From positions 62,001 to 126,000 of the forward strand of contig CANNCA010000003.1 in assembly GCA_947503005.1 (NCBI GenBank): a stretch of DNA of 64,000 nt. The letters are read 5' to 3'. Source of the DNA: an uncultured Flavobacteriaceae bacterium. Its GTDB lineage: Bacteria > Bacteroidota > Bacteroidia > Flavobacteriales > Flavobacteriaceae. Each line of letters opens with the position of its first letter. The first letter of the stretch is position 1. Under the pieces are notes generated by a model, which was not told where the DNA came from, made no database searches, and worked only from the letters and a program-made list of their open reading frames with translations. Position numbers and translations under genes: made by a program. Positions 34,570 to 40,138 of the stretch are shown piece by piece.

Positions 34570-37500
34570 ATGAAAACTACTTATCTAATTCCACTTTTAC
34601 TACTTTTCGTTTTTCCAATCCAATCAAATCAAGCACAACGCAAAAATAAAAAAGCTGAAAACCTAGTCTACGATGAGTCGCTTTATAGTGGAATGGAATG
34701 GCGATTGGTCGGTCCGTTCAGAGGTGGTCGTGCAGGAACCGCTACGGGAGTTGTCAACAACCCAAACCTGTATTATATGGGTACTGCTGGAGGGGGAGTT
34801 TGGAAAACAACTGATGCCGGCGGCACGTGGGAATGTATTTCAGATGGATATTTTGGAGGATCTATAGGCGCGGTTGCCGTATCAGAATCAGACCCAAACG
34901 TTATTTATGTTGGGGAAGGTGAACAAACGCTACGGGGAAATGTGTCTTCAGGAAATGGTGTTTGGAAAAGCATGGATGCAGGGGAAACTTGGCAATTTAT
35001 CGGACTGGAAGGTTCCGAGCATATTTCAAGAATCAGGATCCACCCTAAAGACCCAAACTTGGTTTATGTTGCCGCTATCGGAAATTTATGGAAACCTAAC
35101 GAGACCCGTGGCGTTTACAGATCTAATGATGGTGGAGCGACTTGGGACAAGGTGCTTTATGTTAGTGATAAAGCGGGTGCTGGCGATTTGATTTTAGATC
35201 CGAACAATCCTAGAATTATGTATGCGGCAACTTGGCAAATGAAAAGAAACGGGTATCGAATGGATAGTGGTGGTCCGGACAGCAAGCTTTTCAAAAGTAC
35301 TGATGGCGGAGATACTTGGTCCGATATTTCAAAATTACCAGGCCTACCCAAAGGGCCTTGGGGCATAGTTGGCATAGCAGTTTCTCCAGTAGATTCAAAT
35401 CGAATTTGGACAATCATTGAGGCAGAAGAAGGTGGTGTTTACCGTTCTGATGATGGGGGCAAGACCTGGAAAAAAATAAATGAAAATCGCGCATTACGAC
35501 AAAGAGCTTGGTATTACAGTCGCATCACCGCCGATCCACAAAACATTGACAAGCTTTATGTAATGAACGTTAGTTATGGCGTATCCACCGACGGAGGTAA
35601 AACCTTTACCTTGAAAAATGCACCTCACGGCGACCATCACGATCTGTGGATAGATCCCAATAACAATAATAGAATGGTCATTGCCGATGATGGTGGAGCC
35701 CAAGTCTCAAACGACGGCGGCAATAATTGGACAACCTATCACAATCAACCAACCGCACAATTTTATCGAGTTTCAACAGACAATGAATTTCCTTACCGTA
35801 TTTACGGAGCGCAACAAGATAACAGTACGGTTCGCATTTACCATAGAACTTCGGGTAATTCCATTACCGAAAGCGATTGGGAAGATACCGCGGGTGGCGA
35901 AAGTGCACATTTGGCACCCGACCCAAAAAACAATGACATTGTCTATGGAGGAACGTTCAAGGGTTATATGATGCGCGAAGATCATGAAATTGGTCAGATA
36001 AGGTCAGTAAATATTTGGCCCGATAATCCTGCGGGCTCCGGTGCGGAAGTGATGAAGTATCGATTCAATTGGAATTTCCCGGTCAAATTCAGTATTCATG
36101 ATTCGAACAAATTGTATGCAGGATCAAATTATTTGCATGTGACTACCAACGAGGGGCAAAGCTGGCAGAACATTTCCCCTGATTTGACAAGAGCACTTCC
36201 CGAGACAATTGAATCCTCAGGTGGTCCGATAACCCAGGACAATACGGGGGCCGAATTTTATTCCAACATTTTTGTTATCAACGAATCGCCCAATGAAGAA
36301 GGTGTAATTTGGATAGGCACTGATGACGGACATATTCAAATCAGTAAAGACAATGGTACAAACTGGGAAAATATTACTCCACCCGCAAGTATGTCTCCCA
36401 AACTAAACATGATCAACAGCATCGATCCAAGTCCGTTCAAAAAAGGAACGGCTTATGTTGCCGCAACATCCTATAAATTTGGAGATTATACCCCTTATTT
36501 ATATAAGACGACCGATTATGGCAAAACATGGACTTCAATTACCAACGGCATAAAAAGGAACCATTATACGAGGGTTGTTCGTGCGGATAAATTTCGCGAA
36601 GGCCTTTTATATGCCGGTACAGAATGGGGTATGTATGTTTCTTTTAATGATGGGGCAAGCTGGCAATCTTTTCAACTGAACCTACCGATTACTGCGATTC
36701 GTGATTTGGAAGTACGTGATAATGATTTAATAGCCGCAACCCACGGAAGAAGTTTCTGGATGATTGATGACCTTACCCCTCTACATCAATTATCATCAGA
36801 ACTCAAGAACAAGGAAGCATTTCTTTTCAAACCGGATAAAGCGTACCGCATGCAACAGTCAGGATGGGGAAAAGCAAATCCAAAATTAGAAGGTACAAAT
36901 CACCCCACTGGGGCTATCATCAATTACTACATTGCTAAAAAGAAAGAAACCGATACTATTCATCTTGACATTTTAGACCAGAACGGAAAGTTGATTCAGC
37001 AATTTTCTACGGCTGCAAAAGAAAGTAAGAATGACCCAAGTGCACCAAAAAAATTGAAAGTGAAATCTGGGGGAAATCGATTCATTTGGAATATGAGATA
37101 TCCGGGCTTTAAATCTTTTGATGGCATGGTTTTATATTCCTCACCAAATGTTGGGCCAAAAGCAACACCCGGTAATTATCGAGTTAGACTGACATATAAT
37201 GGAAAATCACAAGAACAAGAATTTACCGTAGTAAAAGATCCCAGGCTACCCAATACGGATGCAGATTTTCAAAATCAATTTGATTTCCTCATAAAAGTTC
37301 GAGATCAGGTGAGTAGGGCCAATCAAGCGATTACAGATATACGCACAGTGAAAAAAGATTTGAAGTATGTAACCGAAAAAGCAAAGGACAATGCTGAATT
37401 GAAAGAATTGGTTTCCGATTTCAAAACCAAATTGGAGGTCATTGAAAATAACATTCACATGACCAAAAACCAAAGTAGACAAGACCCGTTGAACTATGGT

Positions 37501-37710
37501 ATTCGAATTAATAATCGTCTAGCATTTTTATTGGCGGATTCACAGCGTGGTGATTACCCCCCAACGGATCAATCAAAGGAATTTTTCGTTGAAATAGAAA
37601 AAGAATTGGATGTTGAAATTGAAGCCCTGAATTCATTAATGAAAGAGTACGTATCCAAAGTAAATAACAAAGTCACCGAAACCAAAATTAAGATGATTTC
37701 TTTGGAATAA
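34570..37710 (+). CDS. Large secreted Asp-box (sortilin/BNR) beta-propeller protein
   Basis: 1046 residues with a signal peptide (about 1-22). From residue 40 to 730 it carries about eleven Asp-box turns of the type S-x-D-x-G-x-T-W (STDAGGTW-like variants TTDAGGTW, SMDAGETW, SNDGGATW, STDGGDTW, SDDGGKTW, SNDGGNNW, TTDYGKTW). These define sortilin/VPS10- and BNR-type propellers, probably two. A beta domain and a C-terminal helical segment (about 890-1046) follow. Often annotated as glycosyl hydrolase, but no catalytic set is evident. It is a single gene; the role is unknown. Confidence 0.88.
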   Translation: MKTTYLIPLLLLFVFPIQSNQAQRKNKKAENLVYDESLYSGMEWRLVGPFRGGRAGTATGVVNNPNLYYMGTAGGGVWKTTDAGGTWECISDGYFGGSIGAVAVSESDPNVIYVGEGEQTLRGNVSSGNGVWKSMDAGETWQFIGLEGSEHISRIRIHPKDPNLVYVAAIGNLWKPNETRGVYRSNDGGATWDKVLYVSDKAGAGDLILDPNNPRIMYAATWQMKRNGYRMDSGGPDSKLFKSTDGGDTWSDISKLPGLPKGPWGIVGIAVSPVDSNRIWTIIEAEEGGVYRSDDGGKTWKKINENRALRQRAWYYSRITADPQNIDKLYVMNVSYGVSTDGGKTFTLKNAPHGDHHDLWIDPNNNNRMVIADDGGAQVSNDGGNNWTTYHNQPTAQFYRVSTDNEFPYRIYGAQQDNSTVRIYHRTSGNSITESDWEDTAGGESAHLAPDPKNNDIVYGGTFKGYMMREDHEIGQIRSVNIWPDNPAGSGAEVMKYRFNWNFPVKFSIHDSNKLYAGSNYLHVTTNEGQSWQNISPDLTRALPETIESSGGPITQDNTGAEFYSNIFVINESPNEEGVIWIGTDDGHIQISKDNGTNWENITPPASMSPKLNMINSIDPSPFKKGTAYVAATSYKFGDYTPYLYKTTDYGKTWTSITNGIKRNHYTRVVRADKFREGLLYAGTEWGMYVSFNDGASWQSFQLNLPITAIRDLEVRDNDLIAATHGRSFWMIDDLTPLHQLSSELKNKEAFLFKPDKAYRMQQSGWGKANPKLEGTNHPTGAIINYYIAKKKETDTIHLDILDQNGKLIQQFSTAAKESKNDPSAPKKLKVKSGGNRFIWNMRYPGFKSFDGMVLYSSPNVGPKATPGNYRVRLTYNGKSQEQEFTVVKDPRLPNTDADFQNQFDFLIKVRDQVSRANQAITDIRTVKKDLKYVTEKAKDNAELKELVSDFKTKLEVIENNIHMTKNQSRQDPLNYGIRINNRLAFLLADSQRGDYPPTDQSKEFFVEIEKELDVEIEALNSLMKEYVSKVNNKVTETKIKMISLE

Positions 37711-37725
37711 AAGAAGTGATGATAT

Positions 37726-37792
37726 AAGAGGAGGTAGTCTCAAAAGACTTTATTAACTTTCTGTAATATCGGACTTTTAAGACCGCCTCTTT
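37726..37792. terminator. Imperfect inverted repeat between convergent genes
   Basis: Segments around 37726-37746 and 37774-37791 pair over about 16 positions with mismatches and a bulge around a 27-base loop, between the propeller gene and the Kunitz gene. It may serve as a weak bidirectional terminator. Confidence 0.3.
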
Positions 37793-37825
37793 TATGCTAA
37801 AATATAAGTACTCAAAGTTAAACCT

Positions 37826-38059
37826 TCATTCACACTCCTTACAATCTTCTAGGGTGTCGAAGGGTACGATTCCATCACAACCTCCCCAAAGGAATTCTTT
37901 GCACTTTTGCTCTTCTTGGTCAAAATAGTACTTGGGTATAGCTGCTTCGCAGGGTCCGGTCTTAGGTAATAACTCGCATCTTGGCGTGTCATTATTGGTG
38001 CAGGAAGTACTATAGTAAATGATGCCAATGACGAACAACGCTTTAAAAAATATTTTCAC
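37826..38059 (-). CDS. Kunitz/BPTI-type protease-inhibitor lipoprotein
   Basis: 77 residues from a GTG start (no ATG is available before the lipobox). A signal ends at lipobox Cys20 (YSTSC). The rest is one Kunitz domain with six cysteines at 28, 37, 53, 61, 73 and 76; spacing 9-16-8-12-3 compares with 9-16-8-13-4 in BPTI. Typical features are GPCEA, KYYFD, CKEFLWGGCDG and a Phe six residues before the fifth Cys. The P1 position after the second Cys is Glu38, where trypsin inhibitors have Lys or Arg. Expected to sit on the membrane and bind a protease with acidic preference, if it inhibits at all. It follows the propeller lipoprotein gene by five bases. Confidence 0.88.
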   Translation of the reverse strand: MKIFFKALFVIGIIYYSTSCTNNDTPRCELLPKTGPCEAAIPKYYFDQEEQKCKEFLWGGCDGIVPFDTLEDCKECE

Positions 38060-38064
38060 CTTGT

Positions 38065-39312
38065 CTAGTTCAAATCAAGCGTGCTCAACAATTGAATATT
38101 ATCTGCCAAGTATTTATATTGATATAAAACACCATCGCCAACCATCAATAAGGTCTCTTCCAATGGAATGACATCAAATGTATTAATATCCTTAAAATGG
38201 TCTAGGGCGACCAAATTTTCCACATCGGTCTTGTCGTATACCTTTAAACCTGACTCACCATCGCATACGAACAACTTTTCATCTTTAATTCCGAGACCAT
38301 ATGGTCCATCCATAGGGTAGGAAATTTTCAGTTCAGGACTTGAAATATTGGATATATCAACGATGAACAAACCACTTTCGGTTGCCCCACAACCATTACC
38401 TCCACGCAGGGTTACGTATGCATAATCTCCGTCTACTACAACCGGATCACAGGCCGTTCCATGTTGAAATTCGGATACGAACTGCGGTTTATCAGGCGAA
38501 GAAATATCATAAATATACATACCTCGCATACTACCTAAGAAAAGGTGTTCGCCCCGATTAAATATGGTTTCGATGTCGAATCCGGCATATACATCCTCTA
38601 AATCCAACGGGTTTTCCAAATCTGAAATCTCAAAAATATTAATGTTATGGCTGTCGACAGCATACAGAAAATCACCAACTATCTTAAACCTGGCCAATGA
38701 ACCTCCCTGACCTGTATCTCCAGATTCAGCATTTGCCATATCAAAAGCTACATCTATTTGTGGATTAAGGAATCTATCCTCATACTCGGCAATTAACATT
38801 CGCTCCGTACGAGTCTCCCAACCCACCTGAATTGTTTCGTTGTGGTCGACTCCTTCCCAATCAAAAATATCGGCCTCAACAGGCCAAGCCAAATACCCTT
38901 GAAGTACATTTTCAAGTCGTTTTACAATTACAATATTATTTATATCCGAAATATCGAAAATCACTAAATCCATAATACTATCGGCATACAGAATATCATC
39001 CTTAACAGAAATATCGACATTACCTGCAATCTCAATAAATGAAATTTTACGCGGATCTTCAGGATTCGAATTGTCAATGACATGAACCCCCCGATACTTG
39101 TCGTTAACAAAAATGAAATCCTTGTAGGTATATATCTTTCCTGACTCGTCAATGGGTCGTGGTGGTAGAACATCAACACTGTTTCTGAATTCCGTTTGAC
39201 TCATCATCAGCGGAGTCGCGACTAAATAATCAGCGTAGTCTTTCTCATCGTTTTTTTCACAGGAAACTGAAGTCAAGGCAATGACCATCAGCAATAGAAC
39301 TATCTTTTTCAT
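38065..39312 (-). CDS. LVIVD-type beta-propeller lipoprotein
   Basis: 415 residues from the ATG at 39310-39312; the longer frame from 39360 adds 16 residues ahead of the signal and is rejected. Lipobox ends at Cys18 (LTSVSC). The body has repeats of about 42 residues containing short beta strands with I-D-I-S-[DN] turns, for example VIDNSNPEDP, VIFDISDINN, IFEISDLENP, IYDISSPDKP and IVDISNISSP, the LVIVD repeat style of surface beta propellers. Ligand unknown. It is cotranscribed with the Kunitz lipoprotein gene. Confidence 0.85.
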   Translation of the reverse strand: MKKIVLLLMVIALTSVSCEKNDEKDYADYLVATPLMMSQTEFRNSVDVLPPRPIDESGKIYTYKDFIFVNDKYRGVHVIDNSNPEDPRKISFIEIAGNVDISVKDDILYADSIMDLVIFDISDINNIVIVKRLENVLQGYLAWPVEADIFDWEGVDHNETIQVGWETRTERMLIAEYEDRFLNPQIDVAFDMANAESGDTGQGGSLARFKIVGDFLYAVDSHNINIFEISDLENPLDLEDVYAGFDIETIFNRGEHLFLGSMRGMYIYDISSPDKPQFVSEFQHGTACDPVVVDGDYAYVTLRGGNGCGATESGLFIVDISNISSPELKISYPMDGPYGLGIKDEKLFVCDGESGLKVYDKTDVENLVALDHFKDINTFDVIPLEETLLMVGDGVLYQYKYLADNIQLLSTLDLN

Positions 39313-39391: not shown

Positions 39392-40138
39392 TCATTCTTG
39401 AACGGATACCTCATCGTTTTCCAAAAACCCCACGCCATCTTTGTATATATAATACACCGGAATCTTAGCCAACATTGCCGTAAAGAATACACCAATGAAG
39501 CAGAGAATAAAGCCCAACTCCGCAACAATGCCCATGATTATGAGCAATCCAAAGATGACCAACCAGTTTTTGTTTCCTAAGCTAAAACTTGCTTTGACCA
39601 TCTCCATTGGAGTGAGGTCTTCATTAAAAGCGAGAAAGACGGGAATTAAAGACAGTGGTACAATCAAATAAAACAGACCCACAACACAGGCTGCCATACC
39701 AATAACCGTAAGCCCAAAATAAATGGCAGCCAATATGATTACCTTTCGAAGTCGTCCATTTTTAAAGTAATAAAGGTAATCGTCGTTTTCATTTTCATTT
39801 AAGTCCTTATTCCTGCAGATACGGTAAAAAGCCGCCATCAATGCCAAGGTAATTGTCAAAACACCCATCAAAAACACGGGCAAGATTGTTAGCATCCCAA
39901 TAACTACAGAAGTCGGCATTTCTTCTTGTTGCAACATCTCGGGATCCGTAATTCCTGCAGCGATAAAGGGAATATAAATCAAAACATAAAAAGGCAACAT
40001 ACAGATAAAGGTCAACAATAGGGTGATAAAACCTTGAACCCAGACCTTTTTAAACAATTCTATAGCACGACTAAAAATACTTCCGAAATCTAAAGGAGCA
40101 TTATTCTCGATTTTTTTTATGGTGTTTTTTAAATTCAT
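39392..40138 (-). CDS. Polytopic membrane protein of unknown function
   Basis: 248 residues with about six membrane helices between residues 30 and 230 and short soluble ends; the N-terminus has LDFGSIFSRAIELFKKVWVQG, a layout seen in DUF975-like and GDPD-membrane-domain proteins. I do not recognise a specific family. It is divergent from miaB, with a 143-base shared upstream region that holds the miaB promoter. Confidence 0.7.
   Translation of the reverse strand: MNLKNTIKKIENNAPLDFGSIFSRAIELFKKVWVQGFITLLLTFICMLPFYVLIYIPFIAAGITDPEMLQQEEMPTSVVIGMLTILPVFLMGVLTITLALMAAFYRICRNKDLNENENDDYLYYFKNGRLRKVIILAAIYFGLTVIGMAACVVGLFYLIVPLSLIPVFLAFNEDLTPMEMVKASFSLGNKNWLVIFGLLIIMGIVAELGFILCFIGVFFTAMLAKIPVYYIYKDGVGFLENDEVSVQE

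What the first reader, a model, noticed from the sequence alone, without database searches (positions are those of the whole stretch)
37826..38059. Bacterial Kunitz/BPTI lipoprotein with Glu at P1
Kunitz domains are mostly animal proteins. Here one complete domain, six cysteines and the GPC, YYFD and FLWGGC marks included, is encoded with a bacterial lipobox and a GTG start. The residue after the second Cys (P1) is Glu, not Lys or Arg, so the target would not be a trypsin-like enzyme; a glutamyl endopeptidase or a non-inhibitory role is suggested. It is cotranscribed with an LVIVD propeller lipoprotein, which could place it on the outer surface. Possibly it guards secreted proteins against proteases of hosts or competitors.
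Basis: partly seen in the sequence, partly recalled or inferred. Interest (0 to 1): 0.72.

Follow-up and report, generated by a model that had tools for sequence, protein, structure and literature searches.

The report
Bacterial surface lipoprotein with Kunitz inhibitor
A marine-type bacterium carries a small membrane-anchored version of the Kunitz protease-inhibitor domain best known from animals, in a conserved gene pair, and the residue that should decide which protease it blocks differs between related species.

Summary
Window 37826-38059 (-) encodes a 77-aa lipoprotein-like protein with a complete Kunitz domain (PF00014, E 2.2e-13; model matches solved Kunitz structures). P1 is Glu. The gene starts 5 nt after an LVIVD-repeat lipoprotein gene. 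A wider survey changes the interpretation. (1) It belongs to a sparse bacterial branch (12 of 397 family genomes, own included, one doubtful), one residue short between Cys4 and Cys5 in 93 of 93 distinct domains. (2) Glu at P1 is common: E 29, K 19, D 10, F 10, N 9, R 8, L 5, Q 2, M 1 of 93. Behind the LVIVD gene P1 is E, D, F, L or N in 19 copies, never K/R; P1' needs no change there. Two Flagellimonas copies differ at three of 49 positions: P6, P3, P1. (3) The LVIVD-Kunitz pair spans several genera, and in that slot the domain also occurs fused to two unnamed lipoprotein domains. Best reading: an outer-membrane-anchored inhibitor of foreign chymotrypsin-fold proteases with changing specificity. 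A glutamyl-endopeptidase target is possible but unsupported; no activity has been shown.

The parts
37826..38059 (-). Kunitz lipoprotein gene, 77 aa, GTG start
   Evidence: pN well below pS against 8 relatives
38003..38059 (-). putative lipoprotein signal peptide (residues 1-19, ...YSTS|C20); lipid-acceptor Cys codon at 38000-38002
   Evidence: read by eye and compared with orthologues; no signal-peptide predictor available
37832..37978 (-). Kunitz/BPTI domain, Cys28 to Cys76, spacings 8-15-7-11-2
   Evidence: PF00014, Foldseek to PDB Kunitz structures, spacing
37946..37948 (-). codon of P1 residue Glu38, directly after the second Cys; followed by P1' Ala39
   Evidence: alignment A1
38065..39312 (-). 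LVIVD-repeat lipoprotein gene, 415 aa (MKKIVLLLMVIALTSVS|CEKNDE), directly upstream; 5-nt gap to the Kunitz start
   Evidence: PF08309 E 4.7e-12; adjacency in other genomes
37715..37800 (-). hairpin (inverted repeat) between the Kunitz gene and the convergent gene, possibly a terminator
   Evidence: MFE -20.3 kcal/mol, z -3.36, 0 of 200 shuffles as stable; the consensus terminator scan did not list it

Best explanation
The gene makes a small lipoprotein, anchored in the outer membrane and probably facing outward, that carries one Kunitz domain. It works as a substrate-like (standard-mechanism) inhibitor: the loop held by the Cys37-Cys61 bridge (pairing by analogy with the family) offers Glu38-Ala39 to the active site of a chymotrypsin-fold (S1-type) serine protease. 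Its partner, probably from the same transcript, is an LVIVD-repeat lipoprotein (a surface beta-propeller by family knowledge, recalled). The target is most likely a foreign protease (competitor, predator, grazer or host), because the genome shows only two S1-type proteases and because P1 is swapped between close relatives while the scaffold is kept. Shown: domain, fold prediction, conserved pair, P1 turnover, conservation of P1' and scaffold. Inferred: outer-surface location, cotranscription, inhibition, foreign target.
For: Kunitz domain and fold. Loop frame kept in 93 distinct domains: Gly at P4 93/93, Cys at P2 93/93, P1' Ala 88, Gly 4, Ser 1, Gly-Gly before Cys4 93/93. In the 19 LVIVD-linked copies P1 has the lowest mean BLOSUM62 of 44 columns and 8 parsimony steps, tied second of 44, against 0 at P1'. 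Flagellimonas L024 and L027 differ at 3 of 49 positions: P6, P3 and P1. LVIVD gene adjacent in 9 of the 11 credible family-sample carriers. Own genome: 2 matches to PF00089/PF13365, one an HtrA-like PDZ protein, one of 357 aa without evident signal. Orthologue N-termini such as C-SDDDNE resemble the SDDFE export signal (PMC5080379, passages). Bacterial-encoded Kunitz domains were reported to inhibit proteases, with P1 Arg or Leu fitting different targets (PMC11511053, abstract and section 2.5).
Against: No activity was measured. Glu at P1 is, as I recall BPTI mutant work, poor for trypsin, chymotrypsin and elastase, so a good target is not obvious. Domain columns 1, 5 and 6 change as often as P1 or more, and over all 93 domains columns 1 and 3 are less conservative than P1, so fast change alone does not prove an arms race. 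The window protein's own export signal is weak (C-TNND). Pairing with one LVIVD gene would also fit a structural role. P1' conservation can reflect ancestry, and one of the two retrieval patterns covered the residues after P1. Serine proteases outside PF00089/PF13365 were not searched for in the own genome.
Confidence: 0.58

Rival explanations
1. Non-inhibitory binding module: the Kunitz fold serves as a small disulphide-rich adhesive or structural domain that docks on the LVIVD protein or another surface ligand, and P1 is free to drift because nothing is inhibited.
For: Pairing with the LVIVD gene in several genera and agreement of LVIVD and Kunitz similarity (Mantel r 0.56, p 0.0001, n 19). 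Kunitz domains without trypsin or chymotrypsin inhibition exist, such as those of COL6A3 and COL7A1 (PMC6436896, passages). P1 is chemically inconsistent (E/D/F/L/N).
Against: P1' and the Gly-x-Cys and Gly-Gly-Cys loop frame are invariant or nearly so. Two close species differ only at P6, P3 and P1. The Mantel result is expected from plain vertical co-inheritance.
Confidence: 0.25
2. Specific inhibitor of glutamyl endopeptidases (V8-like enzymes of competitors).
For: P1 is Glu in all three copies found in the window's genus (L001, L002 = L022, L003 = L021), and acidic in 11 of 19 LVIVD-linked copies.
Against: F, L or N at P1 in the other 8 of 19, including close relatives. No paper in the library holds 'Kunitz', 'P1 residue' and 'glutamyl endopeptidase' together.
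Confidence: 0.12
3. Regulator of the bacterium's own envelope proteases (HtrA/DegP type).
For: The genome has one HtrA-like protease with a PDZ domain.
Against: HtrA is near-universal in such bacteria (recalled), yet Kunitz genes are rare (11 credible of 397). P1 turnover does not fit a conserved house enzyme.
Confidence: 0.05

Closest known systems
Kunitz/BPTI family (Pfam PF00014; peptidase inhibitor family I2, so mapped in PMC5673224, passage)
   Same: Six Cys, GPC, YYFD, WGGC, predicted fold, reactive-loop frame.
   Different: Cys4-Cys5 spacing 11 in 93 of 93 distinct type-1 bacterial domains against one residue more in the seven animal domains aligned; Trp before GGC in 93 of 93 against Tyr in those seven; lipoprotein context; P1 often acidic.
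KABP1-5 of the Acinetobacter baumannii protein F6W77 (PMC11511053; abstract, section 2.5 and passages seen)
   Same: Bacterial-encoded Kunitz domains; reported inhibition of coagulation factors and elastase, with P1 proposed as the key site.
   Different: Five domains in one exotoxin protein, P1 Arg or Leu; not a single-domain lipoprotein.
SmCI, three-domain Kunitz carboxypeptidase inhibitor (PDB 4bd9; marine worm, recalled)
   Same: Best sequence match in the PDB (94.6 bits over three domains).
   Different: Animal, three domains, solved in complex with human carboxypeptidase A4 (title).
LVIVD-repeat surface proteins (PF08309; PMC2447325, abstract passage)
   Same: The upstream gene product matches PF08309.
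   Different: Pairing with a Kunitz lipoprotein appears in no title or abstract start of the listings.

Membership tests
Kunitz/BPTI (PF00014) | Profile match above curated cut-off | tested here: met
   50.6 bits against 21
Kunitz/BPTI (PF00014) | Six cysteines in Kunitz order allowing three disulphides | tested here: met
   C28, C37, C53, C61, C73, C76, all invariant in the 15-row alignment A1; spacings 8-15-7-11-2. The bridges themselves were not tested
Kunitz/BPTI (PF00014) | Fold: two-stranded hairpin plus C-terminal helix, superposing on known Kunitz structures | tested here: met
   E41-47, E52-58, H70-74; 41 PDB matches at E<=0.001, the 50 chains listed being of the Kunitz fold by title. 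Disulphide geometry was not measured: no coordinates available
Kunitz/BPTI (PF00014) | Cys4-Cys5 spacing of 12 (BPTI value recalled; seen in seven animal domains) | tested here: not met
   11 here and in 93 of 93 distinct domains; a length variant inside the family, since the Pfam profile still matches over positions 1-50 of 53
Serine protease inhibitor (family I2 activity) | Measured inhibition of a serine protease | not testable with these tools
   needs a bench assay
Trypsin inhibitor subtype | Lys or Arg at P1 | tested here: not met
   Glu38; K/R link to trypsin-like targets in PMC6436896 (passages)
Bacterial lipoprotein | Signal peptide with lipobox Cys | tested here: inconclusive
   STS|C by eye, similar N-termini in orthologues; no predictor on hand
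Surface-exported Bacteroidota lipoprotein | Lipoprotein export signal after the Cys (SDDFE-like) | tested here: inconclusive
   window C-TNND weak; L024, L027, L044 C-SDDD; consensus from PMC5080379 (passages)

The most novel reading that the evidence does not exclude
Behind the LVIVD gene lies an exchangeable inhibitor slot: a surface platform whose Kunitz module is gained, lost, fused to different lipoprotein bases and re-aimed through P1, so that Flavobacteriaceae track the serine proteases of their neighbours much as venomous animals and parasites do with the same fold.
Probability: 0.3. Interest if true: 0.68.

Novelty: new variant of a known kind. Interest (0 to 1): 0.46.

Why it matters
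Kunitz inhibitors are usually treated as animal proteins of blood, venom and parasitism (recalled). A coherent bacterial branch with its own length signature, a conserved gene partner and a fast-changing specificity residue would make this fold a more general shield or weapon against foreign proteases, and it offers a natural series of P1 variants on one scaffold that can be assayed directly. If the domain turns out not to inhibit, it is a case of the fold reused as a surface module.

Tried and rejected
P1 Glu as a rare or defining trait: rejected. It is frequent among bacterial relatives, and after grouping at 80% identity (61 groups) K leads slightly (15.3 against 13.9 for E). Nine of the 29 Glu copies (L042, L075, L077, L080, L085, L094, L096, L098, L100) share one downstream gene cluster, so the raw count is inflated by one lineage.

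Mobile element or plasmid: tblastn of the window protein against 72,556 plasmid and 50,697 phage records found nothing at E 1e-5.

Own-protease target: two matches to PF00089/PF13365 in the own genome, one HtrA-like, one of 357 aa without evident signal by eye. Other serine protease families were not searched.

Identity of the fused domains (CGGP and FGEC are my labels): no Pfam match other than Kunitz and no NCBIfam match for the three proteins tried, both at E<=1. The CGGP protein has no PDB sequence match at E<=1. The model of the CGGP-Kunitz fusion (four-row alignment, mean pLDDT 58.7; CGGP part alpha-beta-beta-alpha-beta-beta) gave no PDB match at E<=0.001; the best were Kunitz structures. 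The Kunitz part of that model has pLDDT of only 30-38, much poorer than in the window model. The LVIVD protein has no PDB sequence match at E<=0.1 and was not modelled.

Rows dropped before counts: 5 of 100 loci held no domain fitting the type-1 pattern. L007, L018 and L019 are a second type with spacings 9-15-7-10-2, L020 loses its frame, and L017 is a 22.3-bit partial match antisense to a 1035-aa open frame. P1 counts cover the other 95 loci (103 domains, 93 distinct). The 80 loci are the best of 166 confirmed stretches, found with two peptide patterns and ranked by likeness to the window protein, so they are not a neutral sample. In one search, 8 secondary LVIVD matches (L122-L129) were left out, and L157 shows only 266 bases downstream. 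In one search the script picked a wrong Cys in several of the 19 N-termini (for example L014, L028, L046), so the export-signal remark rests on the three named.

Weak points: the Fisher tests (LVIVD presence against Kunitz presence p 0.0018 with the doubtful G219 dropped, 0.0007 with it; basic P1 linked against unlinked p 0.0011) are not corrected for relatedness.

Full report
What is there. The - strand ORF at 37826-38059 encodes 77 residues: MKIFFKALFVIGIIYYSTS|CTNNDTPR followed by a Kunitz domain from Cys28 to Cys76. GTG is the first ATG/GTG/TTG of that frame. Pfam gives PF00014 at E 2.2e-13; it is the only PF00014 match in the window's genome. 106 distinct PDB sequences match at E<=0.001. 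The AlphaFold model (15-row alignment, mean pLDDT 74.5, blocks 86-90 over residues 31-77) matches solved Kunitz structures. Against 8 relatives the domain has pN 0.10-0.23 and pS 0.67-1.02, so it is under purifying selection, with synonymous sites near saturation.

Neighbourhood. Five bases upstream ends a 415-aa LVIVD-repeat lipoprotein gene (PF08309) on the same strand. Downstream lies a hairpin (z -3.36) before a convergent Sortilin/BNR-repeat gene (34570-37710). A promoter-consensus scan found 6 sites against 6.4 in shuffles. Cotranscription is likely, but inferred.

How common. PF00014 is found in 7 of 59 near relatives, 12 of 397 family genomes and 6 of 395 phylum genomes, each count including the own genome; it rings in none of 14 control genomes. 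In the window's genus 3 of 14 genomes carry it, own included. One of the 12 family hits (G219, 22.3 bits, partial, antisense to a 1035-aa open frame) is probably false, leaving 11. A pattern scan of one genome per 84,980 species gave 166 confirmed stretches, of which the best 80 were kept; their titles are mainly Bacteroidota, with Neomarinimicrobiota and a few bins labelled proteobacterial, Campylobacterales, Myxococcus or archaeal (bin labels can be wrong).

The branch has a signature. In 93 distinct domains from 95 of 100 loci, Cys4-Cys5 spacing is 11 in all, the W-G-G-C and P-F residues and the Gly two after Cys4 are invariant, and the last spacing is 2 (50), 3 (34) or 4 (9). The seven animal domains aligned have one residue more between Cys4 and Cys5. 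The 15 type-1 loci found by the Pfam search (L001-L006, L008-L016) also have 11, so this is not only an effect of the peptide patterns. A second type (L007, L018, L019) has spacings 9-15-7-10-2.

P1 survey. E 29, K 19, D 10, F 10, N 9, R 8, L 5, Q 2, M 1 of 93. Grouped at 80% identity: K 15.3, E 13.9, N 8.5, R 7.0, D 6.3, F 5.2, L 2.3, Q 1.5, M 1.0 of 61 groups. P1' is Ala 88, Gly 4, Ser 1 of 93. Among 19 distinct LVIVD-linked copies: E 7, D 4, F 4, L 3, N 1, no K or R, against 27 of 74 basic in the rest. On the LVIVD protein tree P1 needs 8 changes, tied second of 44 columns, P1' none, and P1 has the lowest mean BLOSUM62 score of the 44 columns. Against this reading, columns 1, 5 and 6 of the domain change as often or more, and over all 93 domains columns 1 and 3 score lower than P1. 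The sharpest case is L024 (Flagellimonas aquimarina) against L027 (F. hymeniacidonis): three differences in 49 residues, at P6, P3 and P1 (names).

The gene pair. LVIVD homologues lie in 26 of the 100 loci held, upstream of the domain on the same strand (19 distinct after removing repeats); titles include Maribacter, Flagellimonas, Allomuricauda, Croceitalea, Croceivirga and Pelagihabitans. In the family sample 9 of the 11 credible Kunitz genomes have the pair; G033 and G250 lack it and lack an LVIVD match. LVIVD homologues occur in 139 of 397 family genomes at E<=1e-50. Of 70 LVIVD loci read for what follows, 5 have Kunitz alone, 3 a CGGP domain fused to Kunitz, 2 an FGEC domain fused to Kunitz, 2 the CGGP domain alone, 1 the FGEC domain alone and 57 none of these (tblastn at 1e-4 within 1500 bases, one locus with only 266 bases). 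CGGP and FGEC are my own labels; neither has a Pfam match. So the same slot holds the Kunitz domain alone or attached to either of two other lipoprotein bases, each of which also exists there without it. LVIVD and Kunitz similarities run together (Mantel r 0.56, p 0.0001), as expected for mainly vertical descent of the pair.

Location. The F. johnsoniae-derived consensus SDDFE gave surface display in Capnocytophaga (PMC5080379, passages). Orthologues L024, L027 and L044 begin Cys-S-D-D-D; the window protein begins Cys-T-N-N-D and its LVIVD partner Cys-E-K-N-D-E. Surface exposure is plausible, not established.

Function. The reactive-loop frame is intact, and the residue that sets specificity in this fold is the chemically least conservative column in the linked set. 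The only bacterial Kunitz study found (PMC11511053; abstract, section 2.5 and passages) reports protease inhibition by bacterial Kunitz domains with Arg or Leu at P1 fitting different targets. The own genome shows as S1-type proteases only an HtrA-like PDZ protein and a 357-aa protein without evident signal. I therefore favour an outward-facing inhibitor of foreign S1-type proteases. A glutamyl endopeptidase is one candidate, not the conclusion.

Literature. Ten searches were made; those on Kunitz in bacteria, on LVIVD and on Kunitz with P1 residue and glutamyl endopeptidase list no paper whose title or abstract start describes this pair or P1 turnover in bacteria. I saw listings only, apart from the papers named above and passages of PMC6436896, PMC5673224, PMC2447325 and PMC1913526 (reference list only). 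The library holds open-licence papers only, so this is no proof of absence.

Noticed in passing
L155, L156 (alone); L022, L050, L062, L070, L011 (fused to Kunitz): An unnamed lipoprotein domain of about 95 residues (CGGP motif, predicted alpha-beta-beta-alpha-beta-beta) sits in the slot after the LVIVD gene, alone or fused to Kunitz; no Pfam, NCBIfam or PDB sequence match.
   Followed up: partly
L111 (alone); L030, L035 (fused to Kunitz): A second unnamed lipoprotein (about 160 residues, FYGECxGEGCIEIF motif) occupies the same slot alone or fused to Kunitz.
   Followed up: partly
L007, L018, L019: A second, divergent bacterial Kunitz lipoprotein type with spacings 9-15-7-10-2 and a YSGC motif.
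   Followed up: partly
L063:5727-6864: A Saprospiraceae bin encodes a 379-aa frame with six tandem Kunitz domains bearing K, E, K, E, K and R at P1, downstream of a topoisomerase gene.
   Followed up: no
L041, L064, L078, L081, L099: In these Neomarinimicrobiota/Marinimicrobia bins the Kunitz gene is overlapped by the start of the next gene (longest-ORF starts), a homocysteine S-methyltransferase (PF02574) in the three tested; a recurrent, unexplained coupling.
   Followed up: partly
L056, L060, L051: Kunitz domains of the same type in bins labelled as archaea (Methanophagales twice, Woesearchaeota once); transfer or bin contamination not examined.
   Followed up: no
L020 around 1407-1611: A Kunitz-like frame that is lost before the third Cys in one class-level relative; decay or a sequencing slip.
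   Followed up: no
window 39392-40138 (-): A 248-aa probable membrane protein without Pfam match lies upstream of the LVIVD gene on the same strand and a similar one recurs there in L102, L103 and L107 (by eye).
   Followed up: no
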